Positions 7,701 through 25,195 of a DNA stretch of 32,703 bases are shown piece after piece. The translations under genes were made by a program, and so were the position numbers. Source of the DNA: Variovorax sp. YR752 (GTDB taxonomy: Bacteria; Pseudomonadota; Gammaproteobacteria; Burkholderiales; Burkholderiaceae_C). How positions within the stretch are numbered: the stretch's first letter is position 1; each line of letters begins with the position of its first letter. The notes under the pieces were generated by a model. That model saw only the letters and a program-made list of their open reading frames with translations. It had not been told where the DNA came from and ran no database searches. The stretch spans positions 1-32,703 of the forward strand of contig CAMATD010000032.1 in the NCBI GenBank assembly GCA_945860785.1. Direction: 5' to 3'.

Positions 7701-8403
7701 GCGCCGTTGATGGGCTGGCGCGGGCGGAACTTCTTGAGCAGATCGAGAAAGCCCTTCCACTCGCTCTCGTCGGTTTCGCGGTTGCTCTCGTGCGTGGTGT
7801 AGCGGCCGGCGGTGTCGATCAGCACCGCCTCGTTGGTGAACCACCAGTCGCAGTTGCGCGTGCCGCCAATGCCGCGCACGGCCGCCTTGCCGAGCTGGTC
7901 GGCCAGCGGAAAGTCGAGGTCGGAGTTGACCAGCGCGGTGGTCTTTCCCGAGCCCGGCGCGCCGATGAAGATGTACCAGGGCAGCTGGTACAGGTACTGC
8001 CGGTTGAACACCGAGAGCGGCTCGCGGGCTTGCCGTCGGCGGCCTCCCCGAAGCGCATGTTCTTCAGGATGGTGGTCGCGTCGGTGAAGCCGCTTTGCAG
8101 CTCCTTGATCTCGGGCGCGTCTTCGGGCTTGGCCTCTTTTTCCTTCCTGGAAGGCGTGCGCAACTGGTTGAGCAGCTGCGCATTGAGCCGGCCCTCGCGC
8201 CACTTGCGATAGATCAGCCGAACGAGCCAGATCGCGAACATCGCGACGATGACCACGATGCGGACGAACTCGCTCTCGAGCGGCCGATAACGGCCCACGG
8301 CGACGACGGGGCCGATGATCCAGACCAGGAAGGCAATGGCGACCAGGCCGAGAAAAATCCAGAGGTCGCGGCTGACGAGAAAACGGAAGAAGGCGCGAAA
8401 CAT
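4769..8403 (-). CDS. tssM: T6SS inner-membrane protein TssM/IcmF (apparent frameshift at 8026-8028)
   Basis: N-terminus MFRAFFRFLVSRDLWIFLGLVAIAFLVWIIGP...; Walker A FIGAPGSGKTTALVNS; DTAGRYTTHES; C-terminus ...MNSFSCPGKS. N-terminal part is in a different frame from the rest. Confidence 0.95.
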
Positions 8404-15184: not shown

Positions 15185-15568
15185 CTATGGCACGAAGTTC
15201 AGGTTCTTGAGCTGACCCGGGACGATCTGGATGCCCCAGGCATTGCCCCCGTTCTGTTGCGTCATGCTCGTGAGCCGGACCCCTGGCGAACCCTTGATCA
15301 GGAAGTTGTTGGAGCCCGTGGTCTTCTTCGAATAGCTCATGACCAGGGACTTGCGCACACCCAGGCCGATGCCCGCGTTGTCCCCGAAGGTCAGCGGTAT
15401 CTTGGTCTTCTTGTTGTGCGCGCACATGCACATGAAATAGATGTTGGTGACGTTGGGCACGGCTGTGAAGCCCAGCGCGAAATCCGGATGCGGAAATGGA
15501 ATCGCAGGCGTCTTGCAGACGTCCGGGATTGCGAAGTCGAGACTTGGCCCCTGGCAAGCACAGTGCAT
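15185..15568 (-). CDS. DUF4150 PAAR-like spike-tip protein, unusually Cys-rich
   Basis: MHCACQGPSLDFAIPDVCKTPAIPFPHPDFALGFTAVPNVTNIYFMCMCAHNKKTKIPLTFGDNAGIGLGV...GSNNFLIKGSPGVRLTSMTQQNGGNAWGIQIVPGQLKNLNFVP. Strong SD aaggaggt before ATG at 15566-15568. Confidence 0.85.
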   Translation of the reverse strand: MHCACQGPSLDFAIPDVCKTPAIPFPHPDFALGFTAVPNVTNIYFMCMCAHNKKTKIPLTFGDNAGIGLGVRKSLVMSYSKKTTGSNNFLIKGSPGVRLTSMTQQNGGNAWGIQIVPGQLKNLNFVP

Positions 15569-15602
15569 TCGATACCTCCTTCGTTCAAAAAAAAGCAAGC
15601 GG

Positions 15603-16313
15603 TCATCCCATGTGGATCTGCTTGGCGTCCGCCTTGATCAGATTCCTGGCCGTGACCACTGTGTTTCTTCCGTGCAGGCGGGCCATTTCGCTCGCCTTGT
15701 AGTCGATCTGGCCCGCCTCCACCTAGTCCAGGCCTTCCGTCATCCGAAAGGCCGATTTGCTCAGATGGCCCAGCCGGTCCACGATGGCCTCGTAGACGCG
15801 GCCGATGATGCGGATGTTCACCACCGTCGCACGCGCCTCCTCGCCCTGGTAGCTCATGCGGCCAATCTGGCAGTCGGCGGCCTGTGCGCCGATGCGCAGA
15901 TGCGCGGTCTGCATGTCGAGGCCCTCCCGCCCTTCGAGATGGAGCTGCGTGGCGCCTTTCACGCGGACGGCGCCGCGCTCGGACGCCAGCGTCAGGTCCC
16001 CCGTCACGTCGATGCGTGCCGTGCTCGCATCAGCCTGCTCGGCGACCGCCGTCAGGTAGAGGCGTTGGTCATCCGGACCAGTGACGAGCACCGTGTCGCC
16101 GAGTTCGGGCCGCAGCAGGCAACTGACTGCCCGCTGGCAGCGCAGAACGCGCCCTTCACTGGCCACACTGTGAATGCCGCCGGGCAGGATGGCCGTGACG
16201 ATCCCCAAGGCATTCACGACGCCACCTGCGCCGCCGGGCCGCGCCGCGGCGATCGTCTCGCGATGCATACCCGCTCGCGACGGGGTATCCGCTGAAGAAG
16301 ACTCGATGTTCAT
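15603..16313 (-). CDS. DUF3540 domain T6SS-associated protein, interrupted by in-frame TAG at 15723-15725
   Basis: MNIESSSADTPSRAGMHRETI...VVNALGIVTAILPGGIHSVASEGRVLRCQRAVSCLLRPELGDTVLVTG...SKSAFRMTEGLD*VEAGQIDYKASEMARLHGRNTVVTARNLIKADAKQIHMG*. Both pieces are in the same frame. Confidence 0.82.
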
Positions 16314-16338
16314 GCTGGATTCCTGGCTGAATGAGGCC

Positions 16339-17448
16339 TCATTCGGAACGGCCGGGTGTTGGGGATGTTGTGGAAGAGGAAGACGGATCCCGGTGCTTCG
16401 GGCGCCGCGCCGAGAACTCCTCGGCATCGAACATGGGCGCGTCCTTGAGAAGCAGCCCGCCACGATCGGAGAAGCGCGTGCCCTCCAGCATCGCACGGTG
16501 GACATTGGTTCGCATCAGCGTGGCGTCACGAAAGTCGGCATCCCGCAGATCGGCATAGGACAGGTCTGCGTGGCTCAGCTGCGCTGCGCTGAAGACGGCA
16601 CCAGTGCATTGCGCGCGATGAAAGACGCACTGCGCGAAGTTGGCGCCGGACAGGTCGGCACCGTTGAGCCGTGCGTCGGCCCAGACACTCTGGAAGAAGT
16701 TGCCGCCGTTCAGGCCCACGCCGTCCAGCTTCGTCTCCACGAACACGCACTGCGGCGCGACCACTCGCCGCAACGAGCCGCCCTCGACCCTGGCGCCCTT
16801 GAAATTGCATTGATTCAAGGTCGCGCCCTCGAAGTCGCAGCCGGAGAGATTGGCATCGACAAACTGGCACAGGTCGAATTTCTGGTCCCGAAAGACCTGT
16901 CCCGAAAGATCCGATTCGACAAACATCGTGCGCGAGAAATGACAGCGCGAGAAGACCGCGCTGCGCAGATCGGCTTGGTAGAACGTCGTTTTCTCCAGCA
17001 CGCTGCCCGAGAAATCGGCCCGCTCGAGCCGCGTGTCGTAGAACACCATCATCTCCGACGTGAGCGTGCCGAACGATGCCCCGCTCGCATCGCAATCCAC
17101 GAAGCTCAGCATTCCCGCAACCGCACCGTCGAAGCGCGCCTCGGACAGCCGGACATCGTGGAACGCCGCCTGGTCCAGCCTGGCGCTGTCCATGCGCATG
17201 CCCGAAGCGTCGCCGCGGTGAAAGGTGCATTGGTCCGCATCGGCCTGCTCGAGAACGGCGCCCGTCAACCTGCAGTCGACGAACATGCTGCCGTTCACCT
17301 GCGCGCCGGACAGGTTGGCGCCCGAAAAGTCGGAGTCGAGGAAGATGCCGCCCGCGAGGTCCAGGCCACGCAGGTCCAGCCCCTGCAGATTCGCTTTGGA
17401 GATCTCCCGGCCTTCCTTGATCATCTTGCGCAACTGCCTGGGCGTCAT
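16339..17448 (-). CDS. Pentapeptide-repeat protein
   Basis: MTPRQLRKMIKEGREISKANLQGLDLRGLDLAGGIFLDSDFSGANLSGAQVNGSMF...ANLSGCDFEGATLNQCNFKGARVEGG...: continuous A(D/N)LXX-type repeats. Start overlaps the upstream gene stop. Confidence 0.92.
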   Translation of the reverse strand: MTPRQLRKMIKEGREISKANLQGLDLRGLDLAGGIFLDSDFSGANLSGAQVNGSMFVDCRLTGAVLEQADADQCTFHRGDASGMRMDSARLDQAAFHDVRLSEARFDGAVAGMLSFVDCDASGASFGTLTSEMMVFYDTRLERADFSGSVLEKTTFYQADLRSAVFSRCHFSRTMFVESDLSGQVFRDQKFDLCQFVDANLSGCDFEGATLNQCNFKGARVEGGSLRRVVAPQCVFVETKLDGVGLNGGNFFQSVWADARLNGADLSGANFAQCVFHRAQCTGAVFSAAQLSHADLSYADLRDADFRDATLMRTNVHRAMLEGTRFSDRGGLLLKDAPMFDAEEFSARRPKHRDPSSSSTTSPTPGRSE

Positions 17449-20107
17449 GAAGCCGCCTCTGGCGCCTTGCGGCGGGGCGTCGTGATCACCTGCTCCGTGT
17501 AAGCCTCGTCGAACCGCGTGGTGGCGTCGATGAGGCACTGCGAAAGATCGGCCTGGAATAGGTTGGCGCGGTGGAAATCGGCCGCCACGAGAATCGATTT
17601 TCGCAGATCGGCATCGATGAGGCTGGCATCCACCAGCGAGGCGCCTGTGAGATCGGTGCGCACGAAAGCCGCTCCGTCGGCATTGGCGCCGGCCAGCTTC
17701 GCGCCGCGCATCGAGGCATCCGAGAAGTCGGTGTTGTCCAGCCGGGCGTCGCGGAAGTCCGCGCCATCGAGCTCGATCTGCTGCAGGTTGCAATCGGTCA
17801 GCACGGCGCCCTGGAAATTGGCGCCGCACAAATGGCTTTCGTCCACGAAGCACGTGCTGTGCAGCCGGGCGTCGGAGAAATCGACCCGGTCGCTGCAGTC
17901 GGTCTCGGTCCAGTCGCAGGTGTCGAGTTCCGCGCCCTGGAATCGAAGATCCGACACCGTGCTCTCGATCCATGCCACCTTGTGCAGCACGGCATCCGTG
18001 AAGCGAAGGCCGCGCAGCACGCTGTCTTCGTCGAAATTCACCACAGACAGGCGAGCGCCCTTGAAATTGCATTCGGAGAGCGTCGCCTCGGTGAAATCGA
18101 TATCGTCCATCGCGACCGCCGAGAAATCGCAGCGCTCCGCGGTGAAGGACTCGACGAGGGTGTTCTCGAAGCGCGCGCCCGAAAAATCGGCATCGCTGCA
18201 TCTCACCAGGGCCAGGTTGGCCTGCGCGAAGTTCACTTCGCGCATCGACGTTCCATGCAGACTGGCGCGTGCCAGCACGGCGCCCTGCATGTCGCCGCCG
18301 TCCAGCACGCTGCCGGTGAAATCGGCGCACTCGAGCAGGGCCCGGTGCCAGCGCGCGTTGCGAAGGTCCATGTTCGACAGGTCTGCGCCAGTGAAGTCGA
18401 GGTCCGAGAGGTCTCGCGTCTGCGCGAGGATGCGTTCCACCCGGGCCCGGACCTCGGCCGCTTCTTCGGGCGCCATGCGGTCGGCGGCGTCCTGCGTGTG
18501 CGCGGTGCGGCGATAGTGGTCGAGAAGGGCGGCCTGGGCTTTCCCGACCAACTCGCGCATCTGCTGCATCTGCTGCGGGGAGGGCGAAAAGCCGGCCGCG
18601 GCCGGCCCGCTGGCCATGGCCTCGATCTTCGGCATGGCGTCGTCCTGGGGCGGGCCCTTCTGGCGCGCCTGCCCCACCTCCTCGAAGATCCTGGACGTAT
18701 CGAAACCCACCTTGCGCGATTGCTCCGCGTTGGCTCGCCCAGTCTCTCGGCGAGCGCGTTGCGCGCCTCGTCGGCCTTGCGGCGATGCACCTCGACGGTC
18801 TCCCTGGTCTTCTGGATGAAGGCCGGCAGCTCGCGTAGCGTCGGCGTCTTCCCGGCTGCGAACTCCGCAGCCGGATCCTCCGTCCAGGTCAGCCCTCTCG
18901 CCTCGAACGCCGCCCTCGTGCTGGCCATCTCCAGCTCCGCACGGGCCTTCATGTTGGTGCGCATCGGCGAATCCTCGAACGTCGCGTCGAGCTCTGGCCA
19001 AGGCGCGATGGCGGCCTCCGGCATCAGATGTTCGTCGAACAATGCGTAGAGCGCCCGGTCCTCCGACTCGCAGCGCAGCGACATCACCTCGCGATAGGCA
19101 TCCAGTTCCTTCGGCGGCGTGGCCCCGTCTTCGAGCGCGATCATCGCGTGCGTGATATCGGCGGCGTCGTCCTCCTTGACCGGAATGACCCCGTGGTAGA
19201 TCAATCCGATCCGCTCCAGGTGGGGAAAGAACCAGGCCGTGGTCAGGCGCATGGGCACGTCGTCCAGCGTCCCTACGGTGGAATCCACGCCGTTGACGGC
19301 CCCCCGCACCACGAAGGCGCGCGCACGCCACTGCGGCACGTTGCCGCGCAGGATCGCGTGCTCGGGATGCATGTTCCAGATCTCGCAATCCGCGCCAGCG
19401 ATCTCGCCATCGCCGGCTGCCAGCCATTGGTCTGCGGGCGCCGCGTTGAAGTAGCTCCATTCCATGTCCTTCGCGAACCCCGGGAACAGATGCTCCTGCC
19501 AGTGCTCGTCGTACTGACGGCCCAGCCGCTTCGCGCGTGAGGGCCGTGCGATGTCCACCAGCCCGAGTCCGGCGGGTTGCACGGCCTAGTCGGGTCGATG
19601 CAGCCGCGCGCCGGGGTGCTCGACGTTCGGCAGTCGATGCGCGCGCAGTCCGTTGACCACTTTCTCCCCATGTCCGATGCCGACGGGGTTCTCCTCGAAA
19701 CCCGGACCGCCGTAGGCATGGCGCCAATCGACGCGCAGCGACTCGAAGGACGCTGGCGCGGTTGCGCGGCCGTCGATCCAGAAGCGCTCGCCGAAGACCA
19801 GCAGGTCCTTCTGCCGGGTGCCGACCCGCACGCGCACCGCGCACTGGGTCTTGTCCTGCTGATGTCCGCTATAGGCCTGGCCACTGACCAGGAACTCGGG
19901 ACTGGCCTTGGGCATGGCCAGGTCGAACGGCGCCTCGCTGCCGAGCTCGTCGCCGAAGGTCTGCCAGCAATGCGGCTCGGGAATGAGCCTGGCATCGCTG
20001 CCCAGGCCGTCTGTCATGGCGATGACCGTCACCGCCAGCCAATGGCGCTGGTCGTTCGTGAACGGATGGGTCAGCATGCTCAGCCGCAGGGGTTTGATGA
20101 TTCTCAT
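17445..20107 (-). CDS. DUF2169 N-terminal domain fused to C-terminal pentapeptide repeats (in-frame TAG at about 19583-19585; apparent frameshift near 18732-18737)
   Basis: MRIIKPLRLSMLTHPFTNDQRHWLAVTVIAMTDG...ERFWIDGRATAPASFESLRVDWRHAYGGPGFEENPVG...LHRPD*AVQPAGLGLVDIARPSRAKRLGRQYDEHWQEHLFPGFAKDMEWSYFNAAPADQW...; then a frame change to ANAEQSRKVGFDTSRIF...DLDFTGADLSNMDLRNARWHRALLECADFTGSVL... Confidence 0.85.
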
Positions 20108-20538
20108 GTGTTCTGTACGAACGACACCTGGGTGCGCTCGCGATCGATGGCCACCAGCGGTGGATTGCCGTCCGAATAGAGGATCGGAAGCTTCTTCCCC
20201 GTCGTGAAGTTCGCGAGGAGTTCCTGATCGATGAAGGTCTTCAGGATCGTCTCGTGCATCGTGCCTGCGTCATCGCAAAAGCGCACCCGCAGCTCCGCGG
20301 CCGCCATGTTCGGCGATCCGTTGCGCCAGACGACCAGCCAGTTGTCCGGCCGCGCAAGCATCAGGATGTCGGCCTCGGCATGCTGCCCGATGCCCTTCAG
20401 CGCCTTCCAGCGCTTCTCTTCCAGCACATGATCCGACTGGGTCGACATGACACTGCGCACGAGGAAGAAGCTCGTGATCAAGACAAACACCACAGTGATG
20501 CTGGTCATGACGGCAGCAACGATTTCCTTCCAATCCAT
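20104..20538 (-). CDS. Small uncharacterised protein with one N-terminal TM segment
   Basis: MDWKEIVAAVMTSITVVFVLITSFFLVRSVMSTQSDHVLEEKRWKALKGIGQHAEADILMLARPDNWLVVWRNGSPNMAAAELRVRFCDD...; start 31 nt after the vgrG2 stop, ATG overlap with the DUF2169 gene. Confidence 0.75.
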   Translation of the reverse strand: MDWKEIVAAVMTSITVVFVLITSFFLVRSVMSTQSDHVLEEKRWKALKGIGQHAEADILMLARPDNWLVVWRNGSPNMAAAELRVRFCDDAGTMHETILKTFIDQELLANFTTGKKLPILYSDGNPPLVAIDRERTQVSFVQNT

Positions 20539-20569: not shown

Positions 20570-22808
20570 TCAGGTGTTGTTTTCCATGCCGCTGGTCGTC
20601 TTCTTCTTGCCGCCTATGCGCAACGCAGCCATCGCCGACGAGACCTTCGCCCAGGGCACCTTTTTGGCCGACTTGTGGGCCTGAACCCAGTTGACCGCCG
20701 ACAGATTCAGGAACACGCCCGTCTGCAGAAGGGAGTTGGAGACCGTCGTCTGGATCTTGTTGCCGAAGATATCCAGGCTGCCGACGACGATCAGGTGCTG
20801 ATGCCAGTAGGACTCGTGCACCAGCTGGTTGAACCAGCCCTGGTCGGTGGCATTGATATGCTGCTCCGGCGCGTTGATCACGGTGCCGGTCGCGTTGATC
20901 CTGAACGTCGTGGTCTTGATCGTGTAGTCGGTGCTGGTGTTGTGCATGCTGGGCGCGTAGACCGTCTTCGGCCCGAGCACGGTCTTCAGCTTCGGCCCCT
21001 GCACCAGCGTGATGTCCACCGCATTGATAATTTCCAACCGGCCGCTGCCGGTGACGCGGATGTCCGCGCAGCTCACGAGCCGCAGCACGGTTCCGTTGAT
21101 GGTCACGAGGACTTCGCCGTTCACGGTCTCGGTCGCGCCGCCCGTCACCGTGCGGTCTTCGCCGCCGTTGATGGTCTCCACCGCTCCGCCCGTGATATGC
21201 CGCTCCTCGCCCGACTCGAAGGTCGACGACTCGTGGCCCTTGATCAGCGTCGTGCGCGTCTTTGTTCGTCGTGTGCGTCTCGTCGCCCTCCACCTCCGTG
21301 TCGAGGTTGCGCTCCGCGTGCAGCAGGATCTGCTCGGCGCCCATGCTGTCCTCGAAGACGATGGCGTTCGCATTGGCCGGCGAACCGCCCCGGGTGGAGC
21401 GGGACGCGATCCCGCTCTTCGTCGCCTCGCCGGGCAGGTCGAACGGCGGCATCTGGTCGGCGTTGTACACACGCCCCATGACGATGGGGCGGTCGATGCG
21501 CCCGGCGATGAAGTCCACCACCACTTCCTGGCCGATGCGCGGCACATGAACGGTTCCATAGCCTTCACCCGCCCAGGCCTGCGACACACGCACCCAGGCG
21601 GAGCTGTTCTCGTTGCGCTGGCCCGCACGATCCCAATGAAACTGCAGCTTCACCCGCCCGTACGAGTCTGTCCAGATCTCCTCGCCCTCGGGACCGACCA
21701 CCGTCGCGGTCTGCGGGCCGGTGGTGCGGGGCATAGGCGTCTGGCGCGGTGCGCGGAACGGGTTGTCGGCCGGCTGCGCCACGAACCCGAATCCGTAGCT
21801 ACCCGGCGCGCTGCCGGTGGCATAGCCGCCTTCCCGCAGCGCATACGACACCGAGACGATCAGGTAGTCGCGGTTGTCGTCGCCGCGCGGTGCGTTGCGC
21901 AGCGTGAACTTGCGCCCGGGCGCCATGCCGCGCACCGTCGCGTGGCCGTTGCTGCGCGCCGCCAGCGACTGCGCCTCTTCGAGGCGCACGCGCGCATAGT
22001 GCTCGGCCTGCCCGCCGTCGGTGTGCTCGCCGAGCCACTCGTACATGTCGTAGCCGGCGTTGTCGTGTGAACGCGGTTGGTTGCGCGTGCTGCTCAGATC
22101 GCCCTTGGGCGTGGTGAAGTTGAAGTCGTCCACCGTGTAGCTGCCCGAGCGCAATTCCTCGGTCACCTGCCAGTCGTCGATGACCTCCATGTCCTCGGTG
22201 ATCGGCCTGTCGGCCGCGAAGCAGTCGATGCTTTCGTAGCCCGGCATCGGCTCGTGCGCGCCCGCATCGTCGGCCAGCACCAGCGTGTGGCGTTCCTTCT
22301 CGTGCTCGAAGAAGTAGTAGATGCCTTCCAGCTCCATCAGCCGGCTCACGAAAGCAAAATCGCTCTCGTCGTACTGCGCACAGTATTCCCAGGGCCTGTA
22401 GGTTCCGCAGAGCTTCTTCTCGAACACGAAACCGTAAGCACCGAATACTTCCTCGAGGATCTCGACCACCGACTTGTTCAGGAAGGTCCTGTTGTCGCTC
22501 GCGCGCGTGAGAAACCAGAGCCACGGCCGCATCGTGGCGCGATAGATCGTGTGGCGCGACACGCCGTCTTCGAACCCCACCGGCGCGAATCGCGTGATCT
22601 GGCCATGGAGGAACCGCACGCCGGCGGCCGTCTTGATTTCCAGCGCGAGCGGTTTGCCGAGCACGGCGTCGGCATCGATCGAAGGCTGCGGACTCAGGAG
22701 ATCCACATCGAACTCGAAAAGCTGCGAAAGCCCCTCCGTGCCATGCATGGAGCGGAACAGCAGTTGGTCTTCGCCGAGCGGCGAATGGGCTTTCAGAATG
22801 CGGTCCAT
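20570..22808 (-). CDS. vgrG: VgrG spike protein (copy 2; apparent frameshift at 21261-21263)
   Basis: MDRILKAHSPLGEDQLLFRSMHGTEGLSQLFEFDVDLLS...EGIYYFFEHEKERHTLVLADD...; PRIGQEVVVDFIAGRIDRPIVMGRVYNADQMPP; octapeptide-repeat needle, then a distinct C-terminal tail ending KKKTTSGMENNT. Confidence 0.95.
22099..22151. repeat. 53-bp direct repeat, copy A (in vgrG2), identical to 24483-24535 in vgrG1
   Basis: tcgcccttgggcgtggtgaagttgaagtcgtccaccgtgtagctgcccgagcg read at both positions. Confidence 0.9.
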
Positions 22809-22860: not shown

Positions 22861-25195
22861 TCATTTTTTTCTGACCTTGAAGTAGTTGGCCACGTAGAAG
22901 GGGGTGAAGCGCAGGCTGACCGCACCGTGCTCCTTCTTGCCCTTTGCCCCGACGAGGAACTTGAACGGCGCGTCGATCATGAAGAACGTTGCCCAGTTCT
23001 GAAAGATGCCGTTGAACTGCGTGTTGTTTCCGCAGATCTGGAGTTTTGCATCGTAGACATCAGCGGCAACCGCAATCGCCTTCACTTTGTCGCGGGCCAG
23101 GAATTTCAGGAAACCCAGGAGCCAGTGCTGGTCTTTGATGTTGACTGTCTTGTGGGGCGTCTTGATGATGATCACGTCCGCGTTGAGCGTGTAGTTGGTC
23201 GTGTCGATCGTGTAGTTGTCGGTGTGATTGACGATGTTGGGCGCATAGACGATCTTCGGTCCGGCCACGAGCGTGATATCGGGCCCCAGCACCACCTTCA
23301 GATCGATCGCATTGATGAGCTCGATGCGGCCGGCGCCGGTGATGCGGATGTCCGCGCCGGTCACGAGCCGTATGGAGCTTCCATTGACCGTCAGCAGGAT
23401 GTTGCCGTTCACCGTTTCGACGATGCCGCCGTTGACTGTGCGCAGCTCCCCGCCCGTGATCGTCTCGGTGGCTCCGCCCGTGATCGTGCGCGTCTCGCCA
23501 TCTGTCACCGTCTCGGTCGCCCCGCCCGTCACCGTGCGCGTCTCGCCGCCGTCGATGGTCTCCACCGCGCCTCGCGTGATGTGCCGCTCCTCCCCCGCCT
23601 CGTAGGTGGCCGACTCGTGACCCTTGATCAGCGTCGTGTGCGTCTTCTGGGTGGTGTGCGTCTCGTCGCCCTCTACCTCCACATCGAGGTTGCGCTCCGC
23701 ATGCACCAGGATCTGCTCGGCGCCCATCTTGTCTTCGAACACGAAGGCGTTGGCCGTGGCCTCCGAGCCCCCCTTGGATGACCGCGTGACGATGCCGCTC
23801 TTGGTGGCCTCGCCCGGCAAGGCGAACGGCGGCATCTGGTCGGCGTTGTACACGCGCCCCACGATCACCGGCCTGTCGGGCCGCCCGCCAATGAAGTCGA
23901 CGATCACCTCCTGCCCGATGCGCGGCGTGAACACACCGCCGAAGCGCTCGCCCGCCCAGATGTGTGACACCCGCACGAAGCGCGAGCTGTTCTCGTTGCG
24001 CTGGCCGTAGCGGTCCCAGTGGAACTGCACCTTCACACGGCCGTACTGGTCAGTCCAGATCTCTTCGCCCTCGGGGCCGACGACCGTCGCGGTCTGCGGG
24101 CCGCTGGTGCGCGGCGGGGGCGTCTGGCGCGGCGCCCTGAACGCCAGCGCGGTGGGCTGCACCACGAAGTCGAAGTTGTATTCGCCGGGCGGCCGCACCC
24201 GTCGCATAGCCGCCTTCGCGCAGCGAGTAGTTGACGGCCACCGCCAGGTACTCCTGGTTGTCGTCCGAGCGCGGCGAGTTGCGCATCGTGAACGTGTAGC
24301 CCGGCGCCATGCCGCGCACGGTCGCCTGGCCCGCGCTTCGCTGCGCCAGGGCCTGCGATTCCTCGAGGCGCACGCGCGCATAGTGCTCGCCATCACCGGC
24401 GGCCGGGTAGTCGCCCAGCCACTCGTACATCTCGTAGCTGGCGTTGTCGCCGCCCAGCGGCTGGCTGCGCACATTCATCAGGTCGCCCTTGGGCGTGGTG
24501 AAGTTGAAGTCGTCCACCGTGTAGCTGCCCGAGCGAAGCTCTTCGCTGGGCTGCCAGTCGCGGATGACCTCCATGTCTTCGGTCACCTCGCGGTCGGCCG
24601 CGAAGTAGTTGATGGTCTCGTAGCCGGGCATCGGCTCGTGCGAGCCGACGTCGTCGGCCAGCACCAGCGTGTGCTGGTTCTGCTCGTGCTTGAAGTAGTA
24701 GTAGATGCCTTCGAGTTCCATCAGCCGGCTGACGAACGCAAAGTCGCTTTCGTTGTACTGCACGCAGTACTCCCACTGCCGGTAGCTGCCGCTCAACTTC
24801 TTCTCGAACGCGAAGCCGTAGTCGCCGAACACCTCTTCCAGGATGTCCACCACCGACTTGTCCTGGAAGATCTTGTTGTCGCTCGAGCGCGTGAGGTACC
24901 ACAGCCACGGACGCACGGTGGCCCGGTACACGGTGTGGCGCGAGGTACCGCCTTCGCGGCCCATCATCGAGAAGCGAACCACCTGGCCATTGAGGAAACG
25001 CGGCTTGTCGCCTGCTGTCTGGATCTCCAGCGACAGCGGCTTGCCCAGCACCGACTTCAAATCGATCGCCGCGCTCGGGCTCAGCAGATCGACTTCGAAC
25101 TCGAACAGCCTCGACAGCCCCTCGCTGCCCTGCATCGAGCGGAACAGCAATTGATCCTCGCCCAGCGGGGTATGCGCCCTTATGACTCTGGCCAT
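22861..25195 (-). CDS. vgrG: VgrG spike protein (copy 1; apparent frameshift near 24188-24196)
   Basis: MARVIRAHTPLGEDQLLFRSMQGSEGLSRLFEFEVDLLS...; PRIGQEVIVDFIGGRPDRPVIVGRVYNADQMPP; extended octapeptide-repeat needle and a distinct tail ending FTPFYVANYFKVRKK. SD aaggag upstream. Confidence 0.95.
23328..23590 (-). repeat. Octapeptide (24-nt period) tandem repeat in VgrG copy 1
   Basis: HITRGAVE/TIDGGETR/TVTGGATE/TVTDGETR/TITGGATE/TITGGELR/TVNGGIVE/TVNGNILL/TVNGSSIR/LVTGADIR: ten consecutive octads of gp5-like VxGxxxxx type. Confidence 0.85.
24483..24535. repeat. 53-bp direct repeat, copy B (in vgrG1)
   Basis: Same 53-nt string as 22099-22151; both encode part of SGSYTVDDFNFTTPKGD. Confidence 0.9.

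What the first reader, a model, noticed from the sequence alone, without database searches (positions are those of the whole stretch)
23328..23590. VgrG octapeptide needle differs in length between the two paralogues
VgrG1 has about ten consecutive octads (VxGxxxxx-like, as in the T4 gp5 beta-helix), with near-duplicate units TVTGGATE/TVTDGETR/TITGGATE/TITGGELR. VgrG2 has about six in the equivalent place (HITGGAVE/TINGGEDR/TVTGGATE/TVNGEVLV/TINGTVLR/LVSCADIR). The four-octad (96 nt) difference looks like tandem expansion or contraction, implying two spikes of different length in one locus.
Basis: partly seen in the sequence, partly recalled or inferred. Interest (0 to 1): 0.6.

Follow-up and report, generated by a model that had tools for sequence, protein, structure and literature searches.

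The report
VgrG spike lost four needle repeats
Two neighbouring spike proteins of a bacterial type VI secretion system do differ by exactly four 8-residue needle repeats (10 versus 6), because the second one lost four repeats from the ten that all relatives share; the locus itself also looks like three genes reduced to two, either really or by misassembly.

Summary
VgrG1 (minus strand) has ten register-perfect octads at 23344-23583 and VgrG2 has six at 21056-21199, with one 96-nt in-frame gap between them. Expansion in VgrG1 does not hold: all 31 complete orthologues in 13 other Variovorax genomes have exactly ten octads, each VgrG1 octad best matches the same-position octad of relatives, and its 'near-duplicate' units show no DNA similarity beyond codon usage. 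VgrG2 is the third-position ('C') orthologue with octads 4-7 deleted (junction about 21120-21127). Relatives carry three tandem vgrGs after clpV; A and B are nearly identical at silent sites up to the needle, and identity stops inside it (octads 6.6-9.5) in all eight complete loci. The window's VgrG1 has A's upstream DNA and B's tip, so one gene is missing: real A/B recombination or assembly collapse. The contig comes from a fragmented assembly, and both vgrGs, clpV and the DUF2169 gene are frameshifted in it, so reads are needed to confirm the deletion. Whole-octad loss would keep the trimer in register and shorten the needle by about 19 Å. Ordinary biology, with one interesting side finding: the octad needle is where a homogenised spike body meets a private tip.

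The parts
23344..23583 (-). VgrG1 (V1) ten clean octads of the gp5-like needle; ancestral number
21056..21199 (-). VgrG2 (V2) six octads, equivalent to ancestral octads 1-3 and 8-10
21120..21127 (-). V2 deletion junction: loss of octads 4-7 (96 nt); position ambiguous over about 8 nt
   Evidence: (best breakpoint at needle nt 72-80 against the G005 orthologue, 113/144; 78-79 against G039, 123/144)
22864..25195 (-). vgrG1 (tssI): Phage_GPD hub, Phage_base_V OB domain, Gp5_trimer_C needle, private tip; A-type upstream DNA, B-type tip; frameshift near 24193-24201
20573..22808 (-). vgrG2 (tssI): orthologue of the third ('C') vgrG of relatives; frameshift near 21247-21264
22864..23343 (-). V1 tip region after octad 10, 71% identical to the B tip of G005
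20573..21055 (-). V2 tip region after octad 6, 73% identical to the C tip of G005
15194..15568 (-). PAAR-like (Tox-PAAR-like, PF13665) protein, the only tip-cap candidate found in the parts of the window scanned

Best explanation
Both genes are TssI/VgrG spike proteins of a Variovorax type VI secretion locus. In this array of vgrG genes the gp5-like needle ancestrally has ten clean octapeptide repeats. VgrG2, the orthologue of the third gene of the array, lost octads 4-7 by a 96-nt in-frame deletion between out-of-register repeat units (replication slippage or unequal recombination). By the T4 gp5 model each octad is one strand per chain, so removing whole octads leaves the three-fold beta-prism in register and, if the protein is made, shortens it by about 4 x 4.8 = 19 Angstrom without changing hub, OB domain or tip. 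Shown: the octad counts, the 96-nt difference, the direction of change, the orthology. Inferred: the deletion mechanism, the shortening, and that the protein is made and works.
For: Exact 96-nt gap. Ten octads in all 31 complete A/B/C orthologues of 13 genomes. V2 octads 1-3 and 4-6 match positions 1-3 and 8-10 of C orthologues (0.78-0.85 and 0.79-0.83 identity). V2's tip groups with G005 C (support 97/76, 73% identity). Flanking gene order conserved with G005. Pfam and NCBIfam identify Phage_GPD, Phage_base_V, Gp5_trimer_C and TIGR03361. Helix geometry from T4 gp5: 110 Angstrom for 5+18 strands (PMC3004832).
Against: No reads were available. The source is a fragmented assembly (445 contigs, 86.8% complete, 4.6% contamination), and vgrG1, vgrG2, clpV and the DUF2169 gene each carry a frameshift in it, so the locus may be erroneous or decaying. 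V2 also has a Cys where most orthologues have Gly in the last octad. No second genome with a six-octad copy was found.
Confidence: 0.68

Rival explanations
1. Assembly or consensus artefact: the 96 nt were lost, and one of three vgrGs merged, when similar tandem genes were assembled from metagenomic reads.
For: Relatives have three vgrGs, A and B being nearly identical over long stretches. V1 has A's upstream DNA (best in 8 of 8 genomes) but B's tip, and no A tip is found elsewhere in the assembly. In draft genomes G002, G039, G008 and G051 contigs start or end inside or beside this array. Several frameshifts in the contig.
Against: Explains the missing third gene better than the needle loss: the deletion is an exact multiple of 24 nt, V2 is only about 70-85% identical to V1 along the gene, and octads 3 and 7 of C orthologues are only moderately alike. 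rpoB, rpoC and dnaE of the assembly are unbroken.
Confidence: 0.22
2. The T6SS locus is genuinely decaying: the frameshifts and the octad loss are pseudogene lesions.
For: clpV, both vgrGs and the DUF2169 gene are frameshifted against intact G005 homologues, further apparent breaks lie near 8017 and 8845, none at a long homopolymer, while rpoB, rpoC and dnaE in the same assembly are intact. vgrG decay is common in Ralstonia aux clusters (PMC11481896).
Against: A needle deletion that keeps both reading frame and octad register is not what neutral decay favours; the coding frames are otherwise long and well conserved.
Confidence: 0.2
3. VgrG2's short needle arose by out-of-register gene conversion or crossover between vgrG copies, the same process that homogenises A and B and whose boundary lies in the needle.
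For: The A/B identity change point lies in octads 6.6-9.5 in 8 of 8 loci; V2's deletion ends at the octad 7/8 boundary.
Against: V2 and V1 are not homogenised to the left of the junction: about 70-85% identity, no raised block, so no recent conversion between these two copies left a trace.
Confidence: 0.2
4. Tandem expansion in VgrG1 from an ancestral six-octad needle.
For: Neighbouring V1 octads look alike at protein level.
Against: Ten octads in all orthologues; positional orthology of octads; no excess DNA identity among V1 octads.
Confidence: 0.02

Closest known systems
TssI/VgrG spike proteins (TIGR03361; solved examples P. aeruginosa VgrG1, PDB 4uhv/4mtk, and 8qja)
   Same: gp27-like hub, OB domain and gp5-like needle; V1 matches these chains with E down to 6e-67
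   Different: private tip of about 160 residues after the clean octads, to which no Pfam family was assigned; V2 has four octads fewer than its orthologues
T4 gp5C triple-stranded beta-helix
   Same: 8-residue repeat; strands of three chains form a prism (PMC3004832)
   Different: no lysozyme domain; shorter clean-octad run; a tip follows
V. cholerae vgrG-3 3'-end reshuffling (PMC5361080) and Ralstonia vgrG aux clusters (PMC11481896)
   Same: conserved 5' body with exchangeable 3' ends, recombination within vgrG, frequent vgrG decay
   Different: here tandem paralogues inside one locus share a homogenised body, and the boundary lies within the octad needle

Membership tests
TssI/VgrG (T6SS spike) | gp27-like Phage_GPD hub domain | tested here: met
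   PF05954, E 9e-105 (V1) and 4e-95 (V2)
TssI/VgrG (T6SS spike) | gp5-like OB domain (Phage_base_V) and Gp5_trimer_C needle | tested here: met
   PF04717 and PF22178 above cut-off in P0001 and P0003; TIGR03361 above cut-off
TssI/VgrG (T6SS spike) | T6SS core genes nearby | tested here: met
   TssH/ClpV, TssF, TssG, gp25-like protein, IcmF-type TssM, TagF
TssI/VgrG (T6SS spike) | single intact reading frame | tested here: not met
   frameshift in each gene in this assembly; intact in relatives. May be an assembly error, so it lowers the claim that this copy works, not the family assignment
TssI/VgrG (T6SS spike) | trimeric beta-prism needle capped by PAAR | not testable with these tools
   monomer prediction failed (mean pLDDT 36.6); a PAAR-like gene is present at 15194-15568
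Tandem octad expansion in VgrG1 | extra units more alike in DNA than codon usage predicts, and absent from relatives | tested here: not met

The most novel reading that the evidence does not exclude
The octapeptide needle acts as the built-in recombination joint of a modular spike: gene conversion keeps the spike body of tandem vgrGs identical while the tips stay private. Because octads are interchangeable in register and by three-fold symmetry, the joint can fall at almost any octad and occasionally changes spike length by whole octads, as in VgrG2.
Probability: 0.35. Interest if true: 0.5.

Novelty: new member of a known kind. Interest (0 to 1): 0.3.

Why it matters
If real, the six-octad VgrG2 is a natural test of whether T6SS spikes tolerate needle-length change in whole octads. 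The survey also shows that tandem vgrGs in Variovorax keep an identical body and differ in the tip, with the boundary inside the octad needle, which bears on how bacteria vary what a spike carries. It also warns that such arrays can be fused or misassembled in draft genomes.

Tried and rejected
Expansion in VgrG1: rejected. Needle length as a frameshift effect: rejected, since the frameshifts lie outside the needles. Structure of the needle plus tip: the AlphaFold2 monomer was useless (mean pLDDT 36.6), so no fold search was run. A further copy of V2 on plasmids: none. A close homologue of the V1 needle region outside the genus: none in a sample of 301 genomes of the family at E<=1e-20. Tandem vgrGs in other genera among fetched loci: only Variovorax loci had two in reach, so generality beyond the genus is untested. 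A stretch of contig C1 as a control for frameshift rate was uninformative; rpoB, rpoC and dnaE were used instead. Searches failed on coordinates.

Full report
WHAT WAS CHECKED. The window is a whole contig (C32) of a 445-contig assembly of 6.2 Mb, 86.8% complete, which I take to be a metagenome-assembled genome (inference from its fragmentation and completeness). Relatives that share the locus are Variovorax genomes by record title. Two vgrG genes lie on the minus strand downstream of clpV. vgrG1 (V1) is read in two frames (24050-25195 and 22861-24474), and vgrG2 (V2) likewise (22808 to about 21250, then to 20570). Pfam and NCBIfam identify hub, OB and needle domains.

OBSERVATION. V1 has ten clean octads at 23344-23583 and V2 six at 21056-21199, with one 96-nt gap between them at DNA level. 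In both proteins and all relatives an octad-like register continues after the last clean octad, so the whole beta-helical part may be longer than these counts.

DIRECTION OF CHANGE. I fetched the equivalent locus from 13 other Variovorax genomes. All 26 genes in nine loci counted by script, and five further complete genes read off the listing, have exactly ten octads. V1 octads match the same-numbered octads of relatives best (diagonal 0.63-0.90). V2's octads 1-3 match positions 1-3, and its octads 4-6 match positions 8-10. V2 therefore lost octads 4-7. The breakpoint is fixed only to needle nt 72-80, window about 21120-21127. The units of V1 that look duplicated show no more DNA identity than their amino acids and local codon usage predict: octads 3 vs 5, 20/24 against 18.8 expected, P 0.32; octads 3-4 vs 5-6, 36/48 against 34.8, P 0.35 (the first run, used one mis-framed codon sample and gave the same answer). 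There is no sign of a recent tandem expansion.

THE ARRAY. In eight relatives with the complete locus there are three vgrGs in tandem (A, B, C). Within each genome the A and B proteins are 99-100% identical over the OB region, and 100% over the sampled hub part in five genomes, but only 30-49% identical in the tip. Third codon positions are 137-140 of 140 identical in the 420 nt before the needle, against 39-47 of 72 in octads 8-16. The change point of A/B identity falls inside the needle, at octad 6.6 to 9.5, in all eight loci; in G018, G020 and G031 the near-identical block starts only about 520-560 nt before the needle. This is the pattern of gene conversion, or of recent duplication followed by tip replacement, with the boundary in the octads. 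The eight loci are not eight independent events: by their tips they form about four groups.

THE WINDOW'S COPY NUMBER. V1 has the upstream DNA of gene A (best in 8 of 8 comparisons) and the tip of gene B (71% to G005 B, support 97/94). V2 has the tip of gene C (73% to G005 C). A's tip is not elsewhere in the assembly. One vgrG is therefore missing: real recombination between the identical bodies of A and B, or an assembly collapse. Several draft genomes break their contigs in or beside this array.

INTEGRITY. Against G005 the window has frameshifts in clpV (27118), V1 (near 24196), V2 (near 21256) and the DUF2169 gene (18746), and further apparent breaks near 8017 and 8845; none sits at a long homopolymer. 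rpoB, rpoC and dnaE in the same assembly are unbroken. I cannot tell assembly error from decay without reads.

MECHANISM. In T4 gp5C the needle is a three-chain prism 110 Angstrom long with 5+18 strands per chain, about 4.8 Angstrom per strand, one strand per octad in the intertwined part (PMC3004832; the per-octad figure is my arithmetic). Loss of four whole octads would shorten V2 by about 19 Angstrom and keep the three-fold arrangement. Slippage or unequal recombination between octads is the simplest cause; octads 4 and 8 begin alike at DNA level in several orthologues. The function of the private tips is inferred to be cargo or adaptor binding, by analogy with known VgrG tips; no domain was found. 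A PAAR-like protein is encoded at 15194-15568, next to a DUF3540 gene, downstream of the DUF2169 and pentapeptide genes.

KNOWN BACKGROUND. Conserved 5' bodies with exchanged 3' ends are described for V. cholerae vgrG-3 (PMC5361080), and frequent vgrG decay for Ralstonia (PMC11481896). My literature searches found nothing on homogenised tandem vgrGs with a needle boundary, but the library is open-access only.

VERDICT. A correct observation with an ordinary cause: a four-octad contraction in one VgrG, of uncertain reality because of the assembly. The side finding, the needle as the boundary between a homogenised body and a private tip, is the more interesting part.

Noticed in passing
L123-L130 (G005, G033, G079, G023, G027, G018, G020, G031): Tandem vgrG A and B are nearly identical at silent sites up to octads 6.6-9.5 of the needle and then diverge to 30-49% protein identity in the tip.
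   Followed up: yes
window 22864-25195: vgrG1 combines the upstream DNA of gene A with the tip of gene B; relatives have three vgrGs here, the window two.
   Followed up: partly
window about 27118, 24196, 21256, 18746, 8845, 8017: Frameshifts or apparent breaks in clpV, both vgrGs, the DUF2169 gene and genes at and next to tssM relative to intact homologues in G005; rpoB, rpoC and dnaE of the same assembly are intact.
   Followed up: partly
L136 (G032), L137 (G022), L138 (G050): Related Variovorax VgrGs share octads like 1-6 but have much longer needles (17 octads in register in L136), so needle length varies between VgrG groups.
   Followed up: partly
window 15194-19844: Downstream cluster: DUF2169 and pentapeptide-repeat proteins, DUF3540 protein, PAAR-like protein, conserved in order with G005.
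   Followed up: partly
window 20107-20538: Small conserved protein (144 aa, 69% to G005) with a hydrophobic N-terminal stretch between vgrG2 and the DUF2169 gene; no Pfam family.
   Followed up: no
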